64,000 nucleotides of DNA. Origin: Kalmanozyma brasiliensis GHG001 (lineage: Eukaryota > Basidiomycota > Ustilaginomycetes > Ustilaginales). Positions 15,179-58,793 of the stretch are shown here, piece after piece; the stretch's first letter is position 1, and each line of letters begins with the position of its first letter. The stretch spans positions 1,426,802-1,490,801 of the forward strand of contig NW_015961970.1 in assembly GCF_000497045.1 (NCBI RefSeq). Direction: 5' to 3'. Below the pieces are notes generated by a model. The model saw nothing but the letters and a program-made list of their open reading frames with translations, had not been told where the DNA came from and did not search any database. The position numbers and the translations under genes are program-made.

Positions 15179-17377
15179 TCAAGAGCACTCGAAGGCGCTT
15201 GCATCACTCGTATCCCTCCTCCCGCCCCTCCTCAACCTCGCCTGCATGGGATACGCGCACAGCGGCCTAGTCAACCTGACCCCGTTCCCAAACGGCGTCT
15301 TGTCATCGCTCCTCTTCGGCGCGCCACCATCCTCACTCCTATATGCCGTTCCAACCATCTCATTCGGTACCCTTCCCTTCTCAACCCACTCCATGAGCGC
15401 CAACAACATATCGTGCTTCGCATCCGCCCTGAGAGGCCTTGCACCCGGCTCGATCTGACCTGCGCCGCCGAAGTTCCAGCACCCTGCTCCACCTCTGCAG
15501 TGCAGCATGCCAGGGATCATGTACAGCTTATAACTCTCGCTCGCCTTTTCGCCCACCACAGCGTGGACCCGCTCGAAGTAGCGTGGCGAAACGAGGGGTG
15601 GTACAAGGGGATCTGCCAGTCCGTGGTAGTGCATGAGCTTTCCACCTGCGTCGAAGAAGCGGCTGAGGTCAGGGATGAACGTGATTGTTTGGCCTGCATC
15701 GAGACGTTCGCCGGCGTCGATGATGGTGGGTGTGATAGCCGTGCCAGCGTCGAAGATGAAGAGGTCGGAAGTGGAGTTGAGGACTTGATAGTGGAACCAG
15801 GCTGAGGGAGAGGCACCAATTTTGCCCACGATCGCGTTGGAGATGGTCCAACCCATCTCGCTGCCGGGAAGAACGGCTTCCCGTATGAGACGGGTGGAGA
15901 TCGTGTAGTCCGTGTAGATGGATGAGAGCGTTTGCAGTTGCGGGTCGGTCAGACAGGTGGGCGCGGAGGGATTCGGTGGTGCGCTGTCTTTTGAGCTGCT
16001 TGCGCCTCCGCCAGGAACCTCCAGAGGTGCCGAAGGGTCCGAAGCGGGCTGCGGCGACACCTGTCTAGGCAGCATGATGTGCTTGAACCGCTTAGCATGC
16101 TTGATCAGAGACTCGGGCGCGGTCTCCACGCTGTCGCTGCTCGGCGCGGTGCCTTTGCCGGTGCAGCCGATCAGCTTCGCAAAGTCAGGCTTGCACGACC
16201 GAGGATCCGAGACGATTCCGTCGACGACACCGTCGCTCGCATCACATGCCTGTAGTACCGCCTTGTGGATCATAGGGTAGGCGCTAGGCGGGAAATGCCC
16301 TTCGCTCTTGTTGTTAGCCAAAAAGGTGTTGACGTGCACCTGGTACGCCTTGAGCTTGTTGAACTCGATTGCGGGGCTGCCAGCTAGGACACCGTCGCAG
16401 TCGAGCGGATATCGTTGCGCTTCTGCCATGGCCGCTCTACCTCCGGTGCTGCACCCTTTGATGTAGCTATAGAAGACGTGCAATTTGCTCTCTGGAACGA
16501 CATTGTTTTTACCCTTCGTACTGGGCGGAACACCGTAGAAGAAGATGCTTACGGCAAGCTTTGCGACCATGGTAGAAAGATGGATTGCTCGGTGGAGCCA
16601 GCCCTCTGGATTGTCGGGCAGCCATTTAGTGCCAGCGAACGCGCTGAAGTGGCCACCATTGGTGCTGGCCACGGCGACGCGGTATCGCGCCATCGTCTGC
16701 TTCATCTCTGAAAAGGCACTGGCGCCACTCAGACCACCGCCGACCACAAAGACGAGCCGTTTGGTCCAGCCGGACGTGGGCGCGCGTTTGAAGTTGGCTT
16801 TGAGGGCCTGAGCCTCACTCTGCTGGTCGGACGAGTAGGATTCGGCCTGCACAGTGTCGTCCGTGGTCTCGTCTTCTTCGTTCGTGTCGGGTAGAGGCAG
16901 CCACACCTCAAAGTGGGCCCGACTATGCTCGCTCGTGCTGACCATACCTCCAATTCGGCAGAAGGACGGCAGACCACCGCTCTGGCTGTAGGGAGCACGT
17001 GATTCTTCTCCGTACCCATCATCCGCGATGACAGCCTTCTTGCCGAATCCAGCAGAGACAGACATGGCACCCGCCTTGTCGTCCTTCGGACCGAAAGAGG
17101 TCTCGGGGATGACAGAGTAGAGTTTCTCAGCGGTAGGATTGGACCCAGCGGGGTAGTGGAAAGCGTACGTATCGCTTATCTCGAGCGGCACACCATCGCT
17201 TCCGAGGCCCTCTAGGAGAAGCTCTTCGAGACTATCAGGAAGGTCGCTGCAGCTTTGAGCGATGCCGGGTACATCTTGGCGGGCTCGAGAGGATGCTCTG
17301 TGGACCAGAGTAGCTCTGGCTTGAGTGACAATGGCCACGGCGACCGCAATCATAGGAACACGCCCGAGCACGAGCAT
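15179..17377 (-). CDS. Secreted tannase / feruloyl esterase
   Basis: The 732-residue enzyme hydrolyses ester bonds in tannins or feruloylated plant wall polysaccharides. It shows the CS-D-HC arrangement that defines the family: catalytic Ser in GCSTGGRAAM (about residue 312), Asp in HGLADPLVPP (about 584) and His in MLHCRGG (about 622), with Cys residues next to Ser and His that form a disulfide. The start chosen is the ATG at 17375-17377, which begins a hydrophobic signal peptide (MLVLGRVPMIAVAVAIV). The open frame continues about 119 codons further upstream, but a TATAAAAG box sits only about 72 bp upstream of this ATG, supporting the shorter start. A plant-associated fungus would secrete it for cell-wall or polyphenol degradation. 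Confidence 0.88.
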   Translation of the reverse strand: MLVLGRVPMIAVAVAIVTQARATLVHRASSRARQDVPGIAQSCSDLPDSLEELLLEGLGSDGVPLEISDTYAFHYPAGSNPTAEKLYSVIPETSFGPKDDKAGAMSVSAGFGKKAVIADDGYGEESRAPYSQSGGLPSFCRIGGMVSTSEHSRAHFEVWLPLPDTNEEDETTDDTVQAESYSSDQQSEAQALKANFKRAPTSGWTKRLVFVVGGGLSGASAFSEMKQTMARYRVAVASTNGGHFSAFAGTKWLPDNPEGWLHRAIHLSTMVAKLAVSIFFYGVPPSTKGKNNVVPESKLHVFYSYIKGCSTGGRAAMAEAQRYPLDCDGVLAGSPAIEFNKLKAYQVHVNTFLANNKSEGHFPPSAYPMIHKAVLQACDASDGVVDGIVSDPRSCKPDFAKLIGCTGKGTAPSSDSVETAPESLIKHAKRFKHIMLPRQVSPQPASDPSAPLEVPGGGASSSKDSAPPNPSAPTCLTDPQLQTLSSIYTDYTISTRLIREAVLPGSEMGWTISNAIVGKIGASPSAWFHYQVLNSTSDLFIFDAGTAITPTIIDAGERLDAGQTITFIPDLSRFFDAGGKLMHYHGLADPLVPPLVSPRYFERVHAVVGEKASESYKLYMIPGMLHCRGGAGCWNFGGAGQIEPGARPLRADAKHDMLLALMEWVEKGRVPNEMVGTAYRSEDGGAPKRSDDKTPFGNGVRLTRPLCAYPMQARLRRGGRRDTSDASAFECS

Positions 17378-17448
17378 CTTGTGGGCCTCAAAAGGGGAGA
17401 TGAGAAGGGCTTGTGTTTCAGTAGTGCTACGGGACGAGTCCAAGGAGG

Positions 17449-17456
17449 CTTTTATA
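17449..17456 (-). promoter_or_regulatory. TATA box of the tannase gene
   Basis: The minus strand reads TATAAAAG about 72 bases upstream of the tannase ATG at 17377. A close, near-consensus TATA box is more typical of inducible secreted-enzyme genes than of the housekeeping genes around it, and it favours the signal-peptide start over longer frames. Confidence 0.55.
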
Positions 17457-19375
17457 CGTTCCGGTGAAGATCCTTTGTTTGCTGGACCTGCATTGACGTG
17501 CTTCCACGCATCAATGTCGAGGTCAGAGGCACCCACACCCACGAGCTGAGCTAAGATGAGATTTGTCTGGTAAGTAACAGCGAAACGGTACATACGCTCC
17601 ATATCTCGCGGTGGGTAGAAACTCGATCGACTCAGCCTGGGACGAAAGCATGTTGATTCATACGCTGTGGGATGGCAGTTGAGCGGGTGGCGATGATGAC
17701 GACGTAGATGAGCTGGCGGTCCGTTCAGCACCAATCTTCATCACAGACTCCAACCGAAATGGAGTCATGAGGACCGTAACGACCCTGGCCGATCTTCCAG
17801 TCCCATCTGCTTCGCGAAAGACCAAGCTGGCCAGGTTCACTCGTTGATAACTATCGAAGAGCCGATCATAGCTGGGAAGGTTGGCGGTATTGGACAGTGT
17901 CGAGAGGCGCTCTAACAGGGAACTGGCGAGCCAAAATTTGGTTAACAGGGAGACCCAAGTTTCGCTCCTCTCAGCCATCAGTTGCATGGTCACGAGGGAA
18001 GGTAAGCCCAAAAACGGGGCCGCACACGGACCACCTCGTTCGACATCTCGAAGAGACCAACACACGCACACACTCACACAAGGCTCCTTGTCCTGCCCTT
18101 GTCTATAGAAGAGACAGGAATGGCATCGTCCTCTGCTACGTCGATGCACCGCACTTTGACTGGACAAAGGTCTGCATCGACGTCAAAGCGGCTCATAGTC
18201 TCGTACTGGACAGAAAGGAGCACGGTCGAGATGGGTGGGAATGGCTTCAGACGGGGTCAGGTGAACTCAGCCTCTCGGCTTTGCGGAGAATTCTGGTGCT
18301 GACAGTCGGTGGCTCGTGATCAAAGAGCATGTTATGGCAAGCGAGCGAACTCCCTCCTCGTCGAGTCGAGTCTTGTTTGAGCCATCATTGTCTGAAGGGG
18401 GCGTCTCTGCAGATTTGTTGAGATGCGGAACAGCGAAAAAGTGGTGGCTGCGCCCTGGGACAAATACAATCGAGTTGAAATCAGCTGCAGCGCCAGTCTA
18501 TGCGGTTTGTATTGGGTCACCAATTTGCACTGTATTCAGGTCCGCTGCCAGGTTCGCTCTGCAGCTCAAGTGCCCGGGTAAGCTAGCGCAGGAAATCAGA
18601 AAAAAAGAAAAGAGGACTCAGACCCGCGTTCGGTCTGGCCCCTCCGCTAGAAACCAGCGGCCTCGCTTTCGCTTTGGTTGTGTGTGTTGGTGTGTTTGGG
18701 CGAGCAGGTGAGGAACCGAGCGAGCACGGACAGTCAGTCACCCAGCCAATTAGAGAGCCATTTTCGAAAATTGGCAGGGCTCGTCTGCCCTCTGTCTGTC
18801 TGCAATTGGCCTCGCAGCAGCGAATGCTGTTTGACTCCACTTTGCAGCTCTGTCTCTCCACGCTCCACGCCACGGTCCGCGTCTCTCTCTCTCCCTTTTT
18901 GGCTTTTGCATTGCTGGCTGCTCATCACCTCGCTTCTCTTTTAGCTCCATCATCTCGACACTCGAACACGGCCAAAACACGCATCGACGCTAGCCTACTG
19001 CGCCGCCATCTGTCTTCGTTGCACCTACACCGCCTCTGCAGGCATCGCGTTCCGTTTACCGTCTCCGTCGCCGTCGTTGCCGCACCAGCATCAGCCTGAC
19101 CGCAGCAACCATCGCACGACACTCGAGCAGTCTGCTTGACACGGATTTCCTCGTTCATTCCCGCAACTCGCTGCCAAGCATACCCGCACTCTGCCGCCCT
19201 TCGCACGTCTCGACCGCTCCATCGTCTGCCTTCTTCGGATCTCCCGAGTCGACTCACGGTGTCAACAGTCACAGCACCCTTTACGCCCCCACCTCCACTC
19301 AGCAGCATTCCAGTCAGACAAGCGACCACCACGTCCTGCTGACAAGTCACGTTCTGCAGCTGTCCACGCTTGAAC
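17457..19375. other. Long intergenic region, tannase / gsk3 promoters
   Basis: About 1.9 kb separates the divergent tannase and gsk3 genes. The right third (about 18680-19375) is a pyrimidine-rich stretch that looks like the gsk3 leader. An open frame on the minus strand (17658-17987) is listed separately. No RNA gene, repeat or mobile element was recognised. Confidence 0.4.
17658..17987 (-). CDS. Possible small unknown protein upstream of tannase
   Basis: This open frame of 109 codons starts at an ATG (17985-17987) and encodes a helical N-terminal half (ETWVSLLTKFWLASSLLERL) and a Ser/Pro-rich tail. I recognise no family. It is on the same strand as tannase and ends about 200 bp upstream of the tannase TATA box. 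The protein-like composition could be chance, because the region lacks intron signals or an obvious promoter. Treat as a weak candidate. Confidence 0.22.
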   Translation of the reverse strand: MQLMAERSETWVSLLTKFWLASSLLERLSTLSNTANLPSYDRLFDSYQRVNLASLVFREADGTGRSARVVTVLMTPFRLESVMKIGAERTASSSTSSSSPPAQLPSHSV

Positions 19376-49627: not shown

Positions 49628-50467
49628 GTCTGCTAGCCGCTTCGCCCAGCGCTGTGTTGAGATGGAAAAGACGTTCTTGGTGTGCGAGGCTGCTGCTGCT
49701 GTTCGTCGAGTCGGTCCGGCGGGTAGGGAGCTCGAGTGTGCGTAAGATGCTGCGCCCGAAGCTACCGGATCAGCAATGTGATGCCTCTGCTTGCTCCTGC
49801 CACCAGCGTTGGTCGAAGCCTGCAGAACGGTTGCAGGAGGATCGTTGTACTGCGGATAGGACGACGGCGTAGCAGCTTGCACAGCTGCAGCCGGGTTGTG
49901 GTCGCCTATCTTGAATACGTGCCTATCAGGGGAGATGTGTTCGGCGCCCCTCGAGCCGTAGTCAGCGATGTTTGAGAGGAAGCGCGATGAGTGGGAGGTG
50001 GTGTTGGTGGTGAGGAGCAAGCCACCGGATTGGGGCTCGGCAAAGTTGATGAGCTGGGAGCTGCAGCCCCGTCTATCCCGCGTGGAGGTAGGTTTTTCGG
50101 ACAAAATTGTGGGCCGCGACGACCTCACATTGATCAGCGGTGCGAAGGATCCGACTCGGCGAAGGGCAAGCAAGGGCGATCACCACTCGACACTGCGCTC
50201 TGCTGCCTCGAAATCTGATTTCTTCTTAGGACCGAAAATCGGCAAGAAGATCCTTGCCAAGGGGAAGCCAAGATGCACGGATAAACGGCCGCCTTTTCTT
50301 CTTGTGTCAATCTTACCTCTTCACATCATACACCATTTGCTTCTTCAAGCACATTCGCTCCGACTCGCAGCTCGACACCCCAGCAGAAAGGAAGCCCACG
50401 GCACGCGTTTGACCGCCGAGCTCTGACCCCTCGACACCCGGTCCGACCCACCACACGCCCGTCCGCC
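49628..50467. promoter_or_regulatory. Divergent region, voltage-sensor gene / nat1
   Basis: This 840 bp holds the promoters of the voltage-sensor gene and nat1. The left 545 bp keep the reading frame of the voltage-sensor gene open, so part of it may be coding. The right end is a pyrimidine-rich nat1 leader. Confidence 0.35.
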
Positions 50468-53140
50468 ATGCCGCCGAAGCGTGCCGCGCTCCCCACCAAG
50501 GAGCGCACGCTCTTCCAGCGGCTCATCCAGGAATACGAGACCAAAAAGTACAAGCTCGGCCTCAAGACCGCCGACACCATCCTCAAGAAGTTCCCGGACC
50601 ATGGCGAGACGGTGGCCATGAAGGGTCTTCTGCTCGGCTCGACCAACCGGCGCGAGGAGGGCATCGAGCTGGCGAAACGAGGTGTCCGCCTCGACCTCAC
50701 CTCATTCATCTGCTGGCACGCGCTGGGCATATTGCATCGACAGGATCGGAATTTTGAGGAGGCGATAAAGTGCTACACTCAAGCACTGAGGATTGAAGGT
50801 GGGGGGAATGTGAACTTGCTCAGAGAGTCGGCGTTCTTGCAGCTGCAGTTGCGGAACTACCCGCCGATGGTGGAGAACAGGCTGACGCTGTTGCGCATGC
50901 AACCGCATCTCAGGATGAACTGGATCGGCCTGGCCGTCGCGCACCATTTGGCAGGGTCGTTGGATGCAGCGGTGAGGGTGCTCGAGGGGTACGAGAACGT
51001 GATGCGCGACATCCCGGATCGCAACTACGAGCACAGCGAGGTGTTGCTCTACCACGCGAGCATCTTGGAGGAGCAGTCGAGGTTTCAGGATGCGCTAGAT
51101 GAGATCGAGAACGGTAACGAGCGGATCGTGGACCTGCGCGGCAAGCAGGAGGCGCAAGCAAGATGTCTCGCCGGGCTGGGCAAGAAGGACGAGGCGGAAG
51201 CAATCTGGAGACAGCTGATCAAGTCGAACCCGGAAAACAAGCGATACTTTGCCGGCCTGCTGAGTCTGCTCGGCATCACAGAGGGCTCGTCGACCGACAG
51301 CAAGGCAGTTGAGATCTTCAAAGGTTTGCAAGCGGACCACCCCAAATCGACTGCTGCCAAGCGTCTCGCGCTCATTCACACCACAGGCGACGACTTCAAG
51401 ACCCAGGCTACCGCCTACGCCAAGTCTGCACTCATCAAAGGCGTCCCCTCGCTCTTCTCCGATCTCAAAAGTCTCTATTCCGACGCCGCCAAGCTCGCCG
51501 CGCTGGAAGAAATTGTCGAAACCCTCCGTCTAGAATGGGCACCCGCCACCTCCGCACCGACCGACGGCACCGACCCACCCACATCCTACCTCTGGTCGCT
51601 CTACTACCTCTCTCAGCACTACTCGCTCACAGGCTCCTCCGAAAAGGCGCTGCACTACATCGACTCGGCCATCTCGCACTCGTCCACCCTGCCGGAGCTG
51701 CACATGGTTCGCGCACGAATCCTCAAACGAGCGGGCGACACCCTCTCCGCCTCCTCGGCCATGTCCGATGCCCGCCTCCTCGACGGCCAAGACCGCTTCC
51801 TGAACAGCAAATCGGCCAAATACCTGCTGCGCTCCAACGACACAGTTGAAGCAGAACGCATCGTAGGGCTCTTCACCAAGCCAGACGCGCCATCACCCAC
51901 GTACGATCTGAACGAGATGCAAGCCCTGTGGTACCTCGTGGAGGAAGCAGAGGCCCACCTGCGCACGTCGAACTGGGCCATGGCGCTGAAACGCGTCGAG
52001 CAGCTCCAAAAGGTCTTCCAAGAATTCTGGGACGATCAATTGGACTTCCACTCGTACTGCATGAGGAAGATGACTCTCCGCAGCTATGTTGGGATGGTGC
52101 GGTTCGAGGATGGGTTGCGGTCGCATCCGGCCTACGTTCGAGCGGCAAAGGCGGCGGTGGCTATCTACACCAAGTTGCACGACGAGCCGAGTACCGCACC
52201 GTTCGTGGCGAAGGAGGAGGAGGAGGATCCGGCGTTGGCTGGGTTGAGCGAGAGCGAGAAGAAGAAGCTGCTGAAGAAACAGAGGCAGGCAGAAGCCAAG
52301 CGGTTGGCGAAAGCGGAGAGTGAGGCAGCAGAGAAGAAGAAGAAGGCGGAGGAGGCGGCTGCCAATGGGGACGCTGTGGAGGACGAAGGGCCCAAGCCGG
52401 ATCTCGATCCCCAGGGACTGGAGATTTTCAAGACCACCCTAGAGAACGGACCGCTGAAGGCAGCGGAAAAGTGGTTGCGCTTCCTCCAGGCTAACGCCGC
52501 AGACCGCACAGAAACGTGGGAGGCGACATTCGAAGTGGCCATCCGACAGAAGAACTGGTTGTTGGCGACACGGGCGGTGGTGGCGCTGCACAAGCTGGGC
52601 GGGGAGGTGACGGAGGAGGTCGTGAGGTTGAAGACGAGGTTGCCGGATCTCAAGGCTGCACCGAAGCCTATTGGGAGTGTCATCTCGGCTGCTCTGGGGC
52701 AGGTGATCCCCGCCGACAAGCCCGTTGCGACATTCTTCGCGGAGGCGCTGCAGAGGTCGGCAGCTTCGACGCCGAAGGGCATGCTGGGCAACGCAAAAGC
52801 GGCTCTGGCGCTCGATCGGAAGGACGAGGCGGTGGGGCTGCTGCTCAACCTTCCCGCCACTGTCGAGGCTTTTACTGGGCCGCGGGCCAAGAACGTCGCG
52901 CTCAAAACGACCGTCGAAGCGCGGGCCCTGCTGGCCAAGCTGGACGCATCAAGTGTCGCTGAGTTCGACGAGAAGGCGAGAGCAGTCTTCCCGCTCGCCA
53001 ACGCGTTCAAGTCGGAAGCGACGCTGGAGGAGGAGAGGAAGGCGAGAGACGAGAAGCGGGAGAAGTGGGCGAAGGGCGTCGAGCAGAAGAGCGAAGAAGG
53101 CGCCGCGAACGGAGAGGCGGCGAAAGAGCCGCTCATGTAG
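50468..53140 (+). CDS. nat1: NatA auxiliary subunit Nat1/NAA15
   Basis: Nat1 anchors the Ard1 catalytic subunit to the ribosome for N-terminal acetylation of nascent proteins. The 890-residue protein is a TPR superhelix from the N-terminus (KERTLFQRLIQEYETKKYKL, ILKKFPDHGETVAMKGLLL, CWHALGILHRQDRNFEEAIK) with a highly charged Lys/Glu segment (about 595-640, SEKKKLLKKQRQAEAKRL) typical of NAA15. It is full length and single exon. In smut fungi nat1 flanks the b mating-type locus, and here it lies directly next to bW, tail to tail, with about 250 bp between the stops. Confidence 0.94.
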   Translation: MPPKRAALPTKERTLFQRLIQEYETKKYKLGLKTADTILKKFPDHGETVAMKGLLLGSTNRREEGIELAKRGVRLDLTSFICWHALGILHRQDRNFEEAIKCYTQALRIEGGGNVNLLRESAFLQLQLRNYPPMVENRLTLLRMQPHLRMNWIGLAVAHHLAGSLDAAVRVLEGYENVMRDIPDRNYEHSEVLLYHASILEEQSRFQDALDEIENGNERIVDLRGKQEAQARCLAGLGKKDEAEAIWRQLIKSNPENKRYFAGLLSLLGITEGSSTDSKAVEIFKGLQADHPKSTAAKRLALIHTTGDDFKTQATAYAKSALIKGVPSLFSDLKSLYSDAAKLAALEEIVETLRLEWAPATSAPTDGTDPPTSYLWSLYYLSQHYSLTGSSEKALHYIDSAISHSSTLPELHMVRARILKRAGDTLSASSAMSDARLLDGQDRFLNSKSAKYLLRSNDTVEAERIVGLFTKPDAPSPTYDLNEMQALWYLVEEAEAHLRTSNWAMALKRVEQLQKVFQEFWDDQLDFHSYCMRKMTLRSYVGMVRFEDGLRSHPAYVRAAKAAVAIYTKLHDEPSTAPFVAKEEEEDPALAGLSESEKKKLLKKQRQAEAKRLAKAESEAAEKKKKAEEAAANGDAVEDEGPKPDLDPQGLEIFKTTLENGPLKAAEKWLRFLQANAADRTETWEATFEVAIRQKNWLLATRAVVALHKLGGEVTEEVVRLKTRLPDLKAAPKPIGSVISAALGQVIPADKPVATFFAEALQRSAASTPKGMLGNAKAALALDRKDEAVGLLLNLPATVEAFTGPRAKNVALKTTVEARALLAKLDASSVAEFDEKARAVFPLANAFKSEATLEEERKARDEKREKWAKGVEQKSEEGAANGEAAKEPLM

Positions 53141-53392: not shown

Positions 53393-55582
53393 TCAAACCT
53401 GCATGAAAGCTTGAGAAGAGAGGTCGAAGTTCATCCAGAATTGCGCCTCGCCAGTGTTTGCCCCTTGCATGGCGCTGGCATGGTCTGACGCAAAAGTACT
53501 GGCGCCCTGGCTGGACTGCTGAGAGCTAGGCAAGGAGGACGCGAGGATGTCGGTGTCGAGGAATTCCTGGATGTCGCTCATCTCGATGTCCACGTTGAAG
53601 TTAGGCGTGTCCGTGTTCGCGCCGTGCAGAGCGAAAGAGGTGACGGGAGGGTCCTGCTGCTGATGAAGCGCGATGGGGCTGGACGACGGGATATGAGTGG
53701 AAGCAGCGGGGTCAAAGAGCTGGGCGAGGCCGAAGAACTGGTCGTTCGTGTCAGCTGGGTAGGCGAAGACATCGTGTGTGTTTGTAGCGCTGGCTCGGGA
53801 GTCAGCTGCGGCGTGAGAGCCCATGACCTGGCCTTGCTGGGACGAGACCACAGACGGGCTAGACGAAACAGCAAAATGCACGTTCTGGGACGAAGCCTGC
53901 GAAGAAGGTGCCTGCGCTGTCAACGGTCCATCGACATGCGTGCTTTGACGACCAGCAGGCGACGCGGCGAAGTCTTCCTCATCGACCCATTCATCGTCAT
54001 CCGTCGTCGGTTGCGTGCCCCACGAGCTCGATGACACTTCTCGTCTAAAACCTTGATCGGAAGTGTGCGTTGCGAGCGCCTCTTGAATGCTTCGCATCAG
54101 ACTATCATCCTCAAGGACGTCCGGAATCTGAAGGCTGCTGAAGCACATTCCCGCTGCTTTGACCTCGAAGGAGTTCTGGTTGTCGCCGGCGAAGGGAGAC
54201 CTTTGACCCTGCGCCACACCCTGTTGTACGAATAGCTGCTGGGTCGAAAGCGTCAAGTCGGGCATGACCGCTTTCGCCGTGCCATCGTATCGACGGGGGT
54301 TGACGTACCTGAATATGTTGTGTGACTTGGTCGGTGTGTCGAAGCAGTCGCTGGCGCCACTGGATGCAGACGATGAGCTGGTGGATCGCGAAGAGGGACT
54401 GCTCCACGGAATGAAGGCATTGTGATACTCGTCAGATGTGGCAGCGGCGTCGCTCGAGCCTGGGGATGCGCTCGGCAGACGAGGCTTCTTGATTTGGGAT
54501 GAGGGCGTGTCGGATCTCAGCTCCGTGTCGTCGTGACCAGATCGGCCGAGCGCGCCATACGATTTGCGTTTCCTCTCGGACAGGGTGAAGTCTCGTGTCG
54601 GTGAGGCGGGAGGAGTTGAAGCCAGCTTGACAGGTGAGAGCTCGGATGATGGATTGATCTGGAGCTCACAACTGCTTGGCTTCCTCCCTTTTCGATTGCG
54701 ACGATTCTGGAACTGTCAGGATCGGAGAAGTATGAAGCAGAGGAAGACGGTCAGTGATCAGCCTCGATAACCGCAAGCATGTTGAAGCGGCTTCCGGCTA
54801 GGGCAGTGGCTCAGAATAAAATGGCATTGAGTATCATTTGTGACGGAAATGCACCGAAGGGAGGCAACCCCTTTGTGCGTGTCACATCTTGTCATGAAAT
54901 CGCGTCATCGCCATGACTCTTCGATGCGTCGACACCGAGTCGAGGCCCAAAGCGCGTTGCAGAACAGATTGGCACTCACCCAGATGGTCACTTGCTTTGG
55001 CTTGAGTCCGGTCACCTCGGCGAGTCGATATTTCTCGGCCTGCGTGATGTTGGGCGTGTGAGCGAAGGCTTGCTCTAAAATGCGAATCGCGTCGGAGTGG
55101 TGTCCTCGGCCAGATTTAGCAACTGCTTCACTGTGCAGCTGTGAAGTGTGGACCTCTTCGACGGCATGACACTTTGACAACTGAACCCCCTTAAGTTCTG
55201 CGAGAAACCTCTTCCAAGCGCTTTGAGCATTGGCGTAGAATAGCTCTGAAAGAGACTTGCGGAAGCGCGTCTCGAAAGCCTCGTCGAGGTTTCCCCTCAC
55301 AAATAGCTCCCTGAGAGCATCTTTGAGGGCTTGATCGTAGTGCTGATGTATGCTTGAAAGTCTTTCTTCGAAGTTGACGATGATGTCTGCCTGCTCGGAT
55401 GGTCCGATCTGAAGCTCGGTCAAGTCTGCGACGAGGCGGTCACGATGTGGAATGACGACGTCCAATCGGACGAATTGGACTCCGGTACAACCCTCCACAG
55501 GAGGAACGGATGAGACCGAGAAAAGATCCGTGATCTGCGCGGCCGTTTCCAGCACCCTCCTGAGGCGATTGATAGTCGCCAT
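53393..55582 (-). CDS. bW: bW mating-type homeodomain protein (two exons)
   Basis: bW is the HD2-type half of the bE/bW transcription factor that controls dikaryon formation and pathogenic growth in smuts. Exon 1 is 55582-54980, exon 2 is 54712-53393, giving 640 residues. The intron has a GTGAGT donor and CCTGACAG acceptor and splits the homeodomain in phase 0: VTIW joins FQNRRNRKGRK, rebuilding the WFQNRR recognition helix. The first 150 residues are the variable, partner-choice region. Behind the homeodomain are a basic patch (SERKRKS, KKPRLPS) that may be the nuclear signal, and a Ser/Gln-rich activation-like region. The frame is intact. Its promoter holds two pheromone-response elements. 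Confidence 0.92.
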
Positions 55583-55773
55583 CGCGAGTCTGACGCAGAA
55601 TCACGAGTTGTTGTCGTCGGAACGAAAGAAGGCGAGTTGGAGGGAGTTGGAAGAGAGGAAAGAAGGATGAGGCTCAAATCCACGATGGATTTCCCCTTCC
55701 CTGTTCGTCTCTTTTTGTGGGAAATCAAAGGGTTTCTTGCGCCCACCTCGCTCATCTCTGCACTTTTCCTACT

Positions 55774-55782
55774 TCCCTTTGT
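55774..55782 (-). promoter_or_regulatory. Pheromone-response element 1 upstream of bW
   Basis: The minus strand reads ACAAAGGGA, the consensus bound by the HMG-box factor Prf1 in smut fungi, about 192 bp upstream of the bW ATG. Confidence 0.7.
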
Positions 55783-56057: not shown

Positions 56058-57401
56058 TCAAGACGATGGCACCGGAGCCGGTCCGAGCACGTCGAAGGGA
56101 GGGCAGGCGGATTGCTTGGGCTGAGTCGGGACGCAGAAAGTGGCCTGAGCGTTGATGACCTGCGGGTGCACTGAACGAGGTCCAGCCTCGTCAGGCATGA
56201 GGAAGCGCGTGCCAGTGGCCGAAGAAGTCCCTGGATCGTTCGTGTAGAGTGATTCGGGAAGAGTCGGTAGCTGAGCGCGCTCGGGCAACGCTTTGACTTT
56301 TCTGCCCGCCTGAGCGTTGACAGTCGGGCTTCGTAGAAGATCGTCTGTATGAGGGAAGGGGTCGAAGTGCGGCATCGAGAGGTTGCTGCCGAGAGAGTTG
56401 AAGCTCGTGTCTGCGGTCGAGCACATGCTGAGCTCCGGTGTCGATCCGAAGCATGGTATTTTGAAAGTGTTGTCGACTCGAAGCGTCATCTTTGCCTGGG
56501 GGATGGCCGCTTTTGAATTGCGCTGTGTCGCGGTGAAAGGCTTGCGGGCAGGGGAGCAGATGGCAGCAGTGAAAACTGTAGGCGGCTGACCAGACCTGTT
56601 CGGCTCTTTGTGCGCAGCAACGAGATCGTAGAGCCAGTCGACGACCTTGTCTTTGACACCGTAAGTAAGCCAGTTGATCATGCCTGTCCAGTCGTCTTCA
56701 ATTTTTTTGTTGTCTGCTGCAGTGAGAGGGGGACCAAGGTTGTCGCGAGGAAAGTCGTCGAAAGCGGAAGTGACTGTCGCGGAATGAGTGGAGGGGCTCG
56801 AAGTGAGAATCTTGGGGTGAACGAGTTGCTTCATGCGTGAGATATCGTTGCTCGAGTACTTTTGGCGGATGTGAGATCAGCCCGAGCGGCGGCGTGTGTT
56901 GATGAACCAGAGGTTTAGTTGAATGACACTGAAAGGATTTTGAGGAACCAGAACTTTTGGGACGCTGACAGCAGAACCGTTTGTGGTCGCTATCAGTGCG
57001 TTCGTTCTTCTCGGAAGGGAAAAGAGTGATCAAGAGCTGCGAGGAAGTGCTTCTGCATATGATATGACGGAAGTGTTAGGAGAAACGCGATTGTGCACTT
57101 GAACCTAGTCCTCGCGTCGGAGCACTTCAGCCACTTCTCTTCGCAAGTTTTCGCTGACTTCTTGGCTGGCAGCTTCGAGATTGGCGAGGGTCGAGGCCAG
57201 GATTGAAATTCGGTGAGCGACCTGACGCACCTCGTTCACCACTTCGGGATCGTGATCGCCGTCTTTGTCGATGGAAGCCGCGGCCGTATTGACCTCCGAA
57301 AGAGTCTCGAGGATCTCGGAATAGGGCTTTCGTTCAAGGAGGAAGTCTTGTTCAATCTCCTTGAGAGAGTCGAGAATGTCGTTGTACGTAAGGGAGGACA
57401 T
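56058..57401 (-). pseudogene. bE: bE-like mating-type homeodomain gene, broken
   Basis: This is the HD1-type partner of bW in decayed form. An N-terminal frame begins at ATG 57401 (MSSLTYNDILDSLKEIEQDF) and stops at a TAG (57105-57107). A likely intron (GTTCAAGT donor, CTAAC branch, TATGCAG acceptor, 52 nt) would join it in phase to KHFLAALDHSFPFREERT, but the TAG would still be the last codon of exon 1. That frame then stops at 56993-56995, while the homeodomain continues in another frame from about 56999 (ALIATTNGS, later VIQLNLWFINTRRRSG), showing a one-base loss near 57000. The homeodomain frame hits a TGA at 56877-56879, just after the recognition helix, where a Trp codon would be expected. 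The C-terminal frame (56834-56058, 258 residues, NWLTYGVKDKVVDWLYDLV) is open. The gene is on the same strand as bW. Confidence 0.85.
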
Positions 57402-57601: not shown

Positions 57602-57610
57602 ACAAAGGGG
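57602..57610 (+). promoter_or_regulatory. PRE-like element upstream of bE-like gene
   Basis: ACAAAGGGG differs from the Prf1 site ACAAAGGGA at the last base only. It lies about 200 bp upstream of the bE-like start and shares the 10-base string GAACAAAGGG, in inverted orientation, with PRE 2 of bW. Confidence 0.4.
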
Positions 57611-57818: not shown

Positions 57819-57827
57819 ACAAAGGTA
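57819..57827 (+). promoter_or_regulatory. Second PRE-like element
   Basis: ACAAAGGTA, two mismatches to the consensus, about 420 bp upstream of the bE-like start. Weak on its own. Confidence 0.2.
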
Positions 57828-58085
57828 ACCATATTCGGCGGTGCGCTCTTTGATTAGGGTGTGACAGCTCTCGGCTGCAGGTCGGTCGGGGTTTCCGCGG
57901 ATTTCCTTTTTCCTCCCTTTTCGCCCGAAACCTTCTTTCCTCTCTCGGCAGACGGAACTCCCCACTCTCGTAGGTACAGTAACCTTAAGGTTTTCCCTGC
58001 GCGAAAACCTTCTTCTTCAACAACCGTTCCCATTCCTTTGTTCTGCACCTCACAAAGCATTCAACACCACACTGCTCAGAGAAAG

Positions 58086-58793
58086 ATGTCGTCGTTACGT
58101 CAGAGCCCACTACCGACGCTTTCGGCGCTATCGGGGGCGTTCACCGAACTCAACAGCACCCTTGCGCCGTTGCTCGCGCAGAACTACGAGGCGCTCAATG
58201 CGGCGCTGCAGGCCAATAGCGCAGCCAAAGACGGGGAAGATGAACTGCACGGCCGTCTCGACGCAGCGCGCATGCAGGTGTCCGTCGCTTACGTACTCAT
58301 GGACCTCGTATGGATTCTGCTCAAGGTCAAAGGTGTGGATCCCACAGGACATCCCGTGATGATGGAGCTCGAACGGGTTAAGGGGTACTTTGGCAAGATC
58401 AAGGGGGTTCAGGAGGGACAGAAGGAGGATAGTAAGACCAGGGTGGATAAGAGTGCGGCGGGAAGGTTCATCCGGGCGGCTCTCGCGGGTGATGGGTCGC
58501 CAGCGGGAGGAAAGCATACAAAGTTCGACGAGGAGACGCCCAAGAAGGCGGCTGCAAAGGAGACGGAGGCCAAAGCAGCGACAGAGGAAAAGAGCCCAGA
58601 GAAGGCGACAGCGACCCCAACATCGGCGAATAAGAAGAAGCGACCCGCCATGGATCCTTTCGAAGGATACGACAAGCCAAAGACACCCAAGACAGCTCCT
58701 GCGACACCCACAGCGGCAAAGCAGACCGACAGCGCATCAAGTTCACCCACGAAGAAGCAGAAGAAGAACAAGAAGGCGTCCGCTTCCAAGTGA
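58086..58793 (+). CDS. c1d1: C1D/Lrp1 exosome cofactor
   Basis: C1D (yeast Lrp1/Rrp47) helps the nuclear exosome, with Rrp6, to process rRNA and snoRNA and is also linked to DNA repair. The 235-residue protein has the Sas10/C1D helical domain at about residues 14-130 (LSALSGAFTELNSTLAPLLA, VSVAYVLMDLVWILLKVKGV) and a Lys/Ala-rich basic tail (KKQKKNKKASASK) for RNA binding. The start at 58086 (MSSLRQSPLP) was chosen because it directly precedes the domain; the frame upstream is leader. In smuts c1d1 is the flank of the b locus opposite nat1, and its presence here confirms the locus. Confidence 0.9.
   Translation: MSSLRQSPLPTLSALSGAFTELNSTLAPLLAQNYEALNAALQANSAAKDGEDELHGRLDAARMQVSVAYVLMDLVWILLKVKGVDPTGHPVMMELERVKGYFGKIKGVQEGQKEDSKTRVDKSAAGRFIRAALAGDGSPAGGKHTKFDEETPKKAAAKETEAKAATEEKSPEKATATPTSANKKKRPAMDPFEGYDKPKTPKTAPATPTAAKQTDSASSSPTKKQKKNKKASASK

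What the first reader, a model, noticed from the sequence alone, without database searches (positions are those of the whole stretch)
56058..57401. bE homeodomain gene at the b locus is a pseudogene
Three independent lesions are visible: a TAG at 57105-57107, a one-base frame change near 57000 inside the homeodomain, and an in-frame TGA at 56877-56879 directly after WFINTRRRSG. The last two lie inside the homeodomain and cannot be removed by an intron without deleting the recognition helix. bW next to it is intact. In sexual smuts both genes are needed as a pair, so this strain may be asexual, or bE may be dispensable.
Basis: partly seen in the sequence, partly recalled or inferred. Interest (0 to 1): 0.85.

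Follow-up and report, generated by a model that had tools for sequence, protein, structure and literature searches.

The report
Broken mating-type gene in smut yeast
In the yeast Kalmanozyma brasiliensis, a relative of the smut fungi, one of the paired mating-type control genes (bE) is broken and turned around while its partner (bW) looks healthy, although a 2023 study described both genes as potentially functional.

Summary
The window is Kalmanozyma brasiliensis GHG001 (bW exon 2 matches that strain's named protein at 100%). The TAG (57105-57107), the frame change near 57000 (placed at 57002/56999) and the TGA (56877-56879) are there. A second frame change lies at or near the TAG, so the TAG may be only its consequence. 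The C-terminal tail of 9 of 13 relatives is missing, and bE lies on the same strand as bW instead of facing it. No consensus-like intron skips the homeodomain, and no second bE was found in the 17.27-Mb assembly. bE has changed 19 of 59 columns invariant in 12 relatives (sister species 5 of 59); the bW homeodomain has changed 0 of 34. So bE is most likely a real, fairly young pseudogene, not a base-call accident. 'Asexual' does not follow: a partner could supply bE to this strain's bW, as in fungi that keep one such gene per mating type. Steins et al. 2023 reported the same-strand layout but called both genes potentially functional; the held assembly contradicts that for bE.

The parts
57105..57401 (-). 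bE N-terminal fragment (variable/dimerisation region), ATG 57401-57399, 98 codons, ends in TAG 57107-57105
   Evidence: aligned to relatives; Pfam Mating_N only 15.9 bits, below its cut-off of 21.4 and one of eight sub-cut-off matches
57079..57107 (-). interval of the first frame change with the TAG at its upstream edge (8 of 13 relatives place the change upstream of the TAG, as far as 57157)
57002..57076 (-). homeodomain N-terminal half, in the other reading frame
   Evidence: best frame for 13 of 13 relatives; 27 of 27 tiles
56999..57002 (-). second frame change
56880..56999 (-). homeodomain second half with recognition helix WFINTRRRSG
   Evidence: PF05920 19.8 bits, below its cut-off of 24; 2 of 13 invariant columns changed
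56877..56879 (-). in-frame TGA at a position that is a sense codon, invariant in 13 of 13 relatives
56058..56876 (-). bE C-terminal region, 272 open codons, lacking the conserved C-terminal tail of relatives
   Evidence: PF05722 229 bits, E 7.9e-68
54980..55582 (-). bW exon 1
   Evidence: exact match to P0017 residues 1-201
54713..54979 (-). bW intron, GTGAGT...CAG, inside the homeodomain codons
53393..54712 (-). bW exon 2
   Evidence: P0017, 640 aa, 100% over the query
55774..55782 (-). perfect pheromone response element upstream of bW
   Evidence: motif named in PMC3248468
55888..55896 (-). perfect pheromone response element upstream of bW
57602..57610 (+). one-mismatch pheromone response element in the bE/c1d1 gap
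57819..57827 (+). one-mismatch pheromone response element in the bE/c1d1 gap
58033..58041 (-). one-mismatch pheromone response element in the bE/c1d1 gap
55652..55666 (-). left arm of a perfect 15-nt inverted repeat flanking bE; the 15-mer occurs exactly twice in the genome
57931..57945 (+). right arm of that inverted repeat
58086..58793 (+). c1d1 (Sas10/Utp3/C1D family), flanking gene
   Evidence: PF04000 51.8 bits; gene name recalled
50285..53140 (+). nat1 (NatA auxiliary subunit), flanking gene
   Evidence: PF12569 532.8 bits; gene name recalled

Best explanation
bE of K. brasiliensis GHG001 is a genuine pseudogene of the HD1-class mating-type gene. Shown on the held assembly: the gene lies between bW and c1d1 (the place expected from U. 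maydis, recalled) but on the same strand as bW; its frame is broken twice and stopped once across the linker and homeodomain; its conserved C-terminal tail is missing; and its C-terminal protein sequence has evolved faster than the sister species', while bW mostly has not. Inferred: a local rearrangement turned bE round and took it out of the shared, pheromone-controlled promoter; bE then lost its function and is decaying, while bW kept its promoter elements and its constraint. The product would be at most a dimerisation fragment without DNA binding. By itself the strain can contribute only bW to a b heterodimer, so any remaining sexual function depends on a partner that supplies bE.
For: Frames and stops: (bW control 159 of 159 tiles in frame). 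Missing tail and homology of the pieces. No second bE: PF05722 gives one place in the genome and a full-length relative gives one place; PF05920 gives one strong hit at another homeobox gene on C20, not examined further, plus sub-cut-off hits at bE and bW. Relaxed constraint: 19 of 59 otherwise invariant columns changed in the bE C-terminal part against 5 of 59 in P. pruni; the 12 others, each left out in turn, 0-6 of 54-60. Tajima relative-rate chi-square 6.9-19.7 with 12 of 12 outgroups for bE, and below 3.84 with 11 of 12 for bW. bW homeodomain 0 of 34 changed. Splicing out the homeodomain: 1 of 11 GT sites before the TAG is consensus-like, and 0 of 12 YAG sites within 500 nt after the TGA have a CTRAY branch site. 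Read depth: Illumina, estimated 585x, about 100x used for the primary assembly (PMC3868848); no N in the window.
Against: No reads, transcripts or second strain were available, and the held assembly (26 contigs) is not shown to be identical to the published one (45 scaffolds). The lesions are clustered (three in 231 of 1344 nt, 0.005 by chance, a post hoc count), the recognition helix is still well conserved (2 of 13 invariant columns changed), and 272 C-terminal codons stay open; this fits uniform neutral decay only if the loss is recent (simulated chance of no nonsense change after 30 missense changes is 0.32, indels not modelled). Codon-position GC of the N- and C-terminal pieces is like that of bW; only the 40-codon helix piece is lower at third positions (0.525). 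Steins et al. 2023 annotated both genes 'with full functional domains'. bW also changes more conserved columns than its sister (8 of 88 against 2 of 88 with 12 chosen relatives; 5 of 67 against 1 of 67 with all 22), and 1 of 12 outgroups gives a significant bW test.
Confidence: 0.83

Rival explanations
1. A reading within the pseudogene explanation: the lineage is still sexual and is moving to one HD gene per mating type, as in Cryptococcus. This allele keeps HD2 (bW), and a partner allele would carry a working HD1 (bE).
For: bW homeodomain unchanged at 34 of 34 columns and bW not significantly accelerated with 11 of 12 outgroups. Two perfect pheromone response elements upstream of bW; 0.47 expected and 3 seen in the whole 64 kb. 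Pheromone receptor matches without stops and a perfect element upstream of it. A Spo11-type domain is present. Meiosis genes reported kept across the group (PMC10262431 abstract). Precedents: Cryptococcus, Trichosporonales, and Microbotryum violaceum caroliniana, which lost HD1 in one mating type.
Against: Only one strain is known here; no partner allele seen. The one-gene systems in those passages have linked MAT loci, whereas here receptor and HD genes are on different contigs (C21 and C20).
Confidence: 0.3
2. A reading within the pseudogene explanation: loss of sex. The species or this strain no longer mates, and bE is simply the first b gene to go.
For: The species is one of the former Pseudozyma species with no described parasitic stage. 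One pheromone copy is reported to lack its stop codon. In red yeasts rapid HD evolution in asexual strains was put down to relaxed selection (abstract of PMC3236058).
Against: bW, receptor and response elements are kept; the same pheromone feature occurs in sexual species.
Confidence: 0.45
3. Sequencing or assembly error in an intact gene.
For: Draft Velvet assembly scaffolded from short reads; no independent reads seen here; the lesions are clustered.
Against: Two frame changes plus a stop within 231 nt despite deep Illumina coverage; excess change at invariant columns and the missing tail lie outside the disputed bases.
Confidence: 0.08
4. bE is expressed without its homeodomain, the broken stretch being spliced out, so that dimerisation and C-terminal parts are kept. 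HD1 homeodomains can be dispensable (C. cinerea, as reviewed in PMC4915694).
For: Lesions confined to the linker and homeodomain; N- and C-terminal parts share one frame.
Against: No consensus splice pair: one consensus-like donor, far inside the N-terminal region, and 0 of 12 YAG sites with a branch site. The C-terminal part also evolves fast.
Confidence: 0.06
5. The gene was replaced by an inverted, cDNA-derived copy rather than flipped in place.
For: 4 relatives' open frames run into what looks like an intron after SLYT or its equivalent (P0012, P0013, P0014, P0016) where K. brasiliensis reads straight on.
Against: Intron inferred from translations only; the copy sits between bW and c1d1, the expected place; it is 3' truncated, unlike usual retrocopies (recalled); intron status of the sister species unknown.
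Confidence: 0.07

Closest known systems
bE (HD1) of Pseudozyma pruni and other Ustilaginaceae
   Same: PF05722 C-terminal region 55% identical to P. pruni, homeodomain pieces recognisable, place next to bW
   Different: frame broken twice, stop in the homeodomain, tail lost, same strand as bW
Single-HD-gene MAT alleles of Cryptococcus and Trichosporonales
   Same: one HD gene lost from an allele while the other stays
   Different: here the lost gene is still visible, and receptor and HD loci lie on different contigs
HD1 loss in the A2 mating type of Microbotryum violaceum caroliniana
   Same: specific loss of HD1 with HD2 kept
   Different: that species has linked MAT loci and known mating types; here one strain only. 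Seen only in passages of PMC6730849
K. brasiliensis HD locus as described by Steins et al. 2023
   Same: same species and strain, same-strand layout
   Different: they list both genes as potentially functional; the frames here do not agree for bE

Membership tests
functional bE (HD1) mating-type gene | Ustilago_mating C-terminal region | tested here: met
   PF05722, 229 bits
functional bE (HD1) mating-type gene | one open frame from start codon through the homeodomain | tested here: not met
   two frame changes, TAG and TGA
functional bE (HD1) mating-type gene | conserved C-terminal tail | tested here: not met
   present in 9 of 13 relatives; the other 4 are open frames that appear to run into an intron before it; absent here
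functional bE (HD1) mating-type gene | adjacent to bW and transcribed divergently | tested here: not met
   adjacent but same strand; divergent in all other species of PMC10262431
single-HD-gene MAT allele | one HD gene broken, the other constrained | tested here: met
single-HD-gene MAT allele | opposite allele keeps the missing partner | not testable with these tools
   no second strain held
single-HD-gene MAT allele | receptor and HD loci linked | tested here: inconclusive
   STE3 on contig C21, HD genes on C20; PMC10262431 calls the species tetrapolar
processed (cDNA-derived) copy | introns absent that the parent gene has | tested here: inconclusive
   apparent intron in 4 relatives only from translations

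The most novel reading that the evidence does not exclude
A smut-lineage yeast with unlinked mating loci is turning into a one-HD-gene-per-mating-type system: a local rearrangement took HD1 (bE) out of the pheromone-controlled promoter, it decayed, and HD2 (bW) alone is kept under selection, with the complementary loss predicted in the opposite b allele.
Probability: 0.22. Interest if true: 0.75.

Novelty: new member of a known kind. Interest (0 to 1): 0.5.

Why it matters
The b locus couples sex to parasitism in smuts. A bE pseudogene next to a constrained bW contradicts a published statement that all genomes of a set including the former Pseudozyma species contain putatively functional genes for both b subunits. 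It gives a natural test of whether such yeasts have lost sex or are reducing the locus to one gene per mating type, a step seen in other basidiomycetes. I did not find it reported in Ustilaginales in my searches, and PMC6730849 states that the linked loci it names in Ustilago and Sporisorium keep two HD genes.

Tried and rejected
An intron that removes only the TAG: rejected by reasoning, not by a scan. The linker is about as long as in relatives, and the CTAAC...CAG-like stretch at about 57080-57054 codes for conserved residues in frame 1.

Splicing out the whole homeodomain: no consensus pair.

A second bE elsewhere: none found. Other homeobox hits away from the b locus (C4, C15, C1 and C20:1244058) were not examined.

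Finding the lost bE tail: a tail-like stretch (minus 55678-55628) is reached by 2 of 300 shuffles (tblastn E about 7) and overlaps the inverted-repeat arm. Not accepted as the tail; nothing better than 25 (shuffle mean 23.7 for the bW side) was found on the c1d1 side.

Using the inverted repeat to fix the inversion ends: flipping back at those arms would put the two perfect response elements on the far side of bE, which I find unlikely, so the ends are left open. The bW upstream stretch occurs once in the genome.

DMC1 model: best hit below its cut-off, most likely Rad51 (recalled reasoning); not used. PDB search of the helix piece: Meis, PKNOX and TGIF type homeodomains only, E 0.09 or worse; not used.

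The f2 row was out of frame and is discarded (it read 2 of 6 against 1 of 10); one search replaces it.

PMC7918651 (abstract and one passage) reports roles of bE and bW in haploid U. maydis; it shows that losing bE could also have haploid effects, which I could not test.

Full report
What and where. The window is part of contig C20 (2,209,810 bases) of a 17,269,742-base, 26-contig assembly. The bW exon 2 query returns a 640-aa protein named Homeobox domain protein of Kalmanozyma brasiliensis GHG001, 100% identical, on a contig of the same length, so the source is that strain. It was isolated from the gut of a chrysomelid larva on sugarcane roots and sequenced by Illumina at an estimated 585x, about 100x of which went into the primary assembly (PMC3868848, whole text). 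The published assembly has 45 scaffolds and 17,323,620 bases; that the held one is the same was not shown.

Anatomy. Going down the coordinates: c1d1 (+, 58086-58793), bE (-, 57401-56058), bW (-, 55582-53393, one intron 54979-54713), nat1 (+, 50285-53140) (the names c1d1 and nat1 are recalled). bE and bW are thus in tandem. Steins et al. 2023 (PMC10262431; I read the outline and abstract, part 1 of 2 of Results, the Mating discussion, the annotation methods and passages) report the same: K. brasiliensis is the only species in their study whose HD genes lie on one strand. They add that both genes have full functional domains and are potentially functional. Supplementary files could not be read here.

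The breaks. Each piece was translated and searched apart. N-terminal fragment: 98 codons then TAG. Homeodomain first half: only in another frame, 57076-57002, best frame for 13 of 13 relatives. From 56999 the original frame returns and runs through the recognition helix to the TGA at 56877-56879. After it 272 codons are open and match PF05722 with 229 bits. Tiles of relatives that passed the score cut agree in 232 of 232 cases with this scheme, and the intact bW gives 159 of 159 in its annotated frame; tiles below the cut were not counted. So there are two frame changes and one certain stop. The TAG lies at the first frame change and may follow from it: in a frame-tolerant alignment 5 of 13 relatives read through it and 8 of 13 change frame upstream. 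In addition the C-terminal tail seen in 9 of 13 relatives is absent.

Is it more than error? Independent of the disputed bases, bE carries the mark of lost constraint. Of 59 C-terminal columns invariant in 12 relatives, K. brasiliensis has changed 19 and its sister P. pruni 5; each of the 12, left out in turn, changes 0-6 of 54-60. Relative-rate tests against P. pruni give chi-square 6.9-19.7 for 12 of 12 outgroups. For bW the values are below 3.84 for 11 of the 12 outgroups that I chose from 22 full-length relatives (the twelfth 12.4). K. brasiliensis bW changes 8 of 88 against 2 of 88 columns with those 12, and 5 of 67 against 1 of 67 with all 22; its homeodomain has 0 of 34 changed. Against heavy decay, the bE recognition-helix piece has only 2 of 13 invariant columns changed, and codon-position GC of the N- and C-terminal pieces is like that of bW, with only the 40-codon helix piece lower at third positions. 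This suggests that the loss is not old. The three solid lesions fall in 231 of 1344 nt (0.005 by chance, chosen after the fact). The open C-terminal region is not in itself surprising: about 30 missense changes would leave no nonsense change in 0.32 of simulations, indels not modelled.

Escapes tested. Introns: of 11 GT sites before the TAG one is consensus-like, and of 12 YAG sites within 500 nt after the TGA none has a CTRAY branch site. Second copy: none found by PF05722 or by a full-length relative; PF05920 finds another homeobox gene and weak hits at bE and bW only. Intact bE genes exist in relatives.

Surroundings. Upstream of bW are two perfect pheromone response elements (ACAAAGGGA, 55774 and 55888, minus); the whole window holds 3 where 0.47 are expected. 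The element is described for smut mating genes in PMC3248468 (passages). Between bE and c1d1 there are three one-mismatch elements and no perfect one; the window as a whole holds 20 sites with at most one mismatch where 10.6 are expected. A perfect 15-nt inverted repeat (55652-55666 and 57931-57945) flanks bE; 0 of 120 shuffles reach 15 nt, and the 15-mer occurs exactly twice in the genome, the backward-read control 0 times. It may be a trace of the rearrangement, but flipping at these arms would misplace the response elements, so the ends stay unresolved.

What it means. The active smut regulator is bE of one partner with bW of the other, and one compatible HD1/HD2 pair is enough (passages of PMC6730849; abstract of PMC13059729). 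A strain with bW alone can therefore in principle still mate with a partner that has bE. Cryptococcus neoformans and Trichosporonales keep one HD gene per allele, and Microbotryum violaceum caroliniana lost HD1 in one mating type (passages). In red yeasts, rapid HD evolution in asexual strains was put down to relaxed selection (abstract of PMC3236058). The receptor gene here has no stops in its two STE3 matches and a perfect response element upstream. I rank recent loss of sex and the one-gene-per-type reading as the two live options; one strain cannot separate them.

Verdict. The result, if reads confirm it, corrects a published annotation in a narrow but testable way.

Noticed in passing
55652-55666 and 57931-57945: Perfect 15-nt inverted repeat flanking bE; the 15-mer occurs only these two times in the genome.
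   Followed up: partly
56058-56834: The protein database holds a 258-aa protein (P0003) that is just the bE C-terminal piece started at an internal ATG, likely a gene-caller product of the break.
   Followed up: no
P0018 (P. pruni bW in nr): Carries one extra residue in the homeodomain (WQFQNRR against WFQNRR here), which looks like an acceptor site modelled three bases too early.
   Followed up: no
about 56238-56243: Four relatives' open frames seem to run into an intron after SLYT or its equivalent (P0012, P0013, P0014, P0016), whereas K. brasiliensis reads straight on: an apparent intron absence.
   Followed up: partly
55628-55678 (minus): Tail-like stretch LSSNSLQLAF just upstream of bW; 2 of 300 shuffles score as high. 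Chance or a displaced bE tail.
   Followed up: partly
L009 1181-1189: Perfect pheromone response element about 290 bases upstream of the apparent pheromone receptor start.
   Followed up: no
window 15179-17737: Large tannase/feruloyl esterase family gene (PF07519) in the same window.
   Followed up: no
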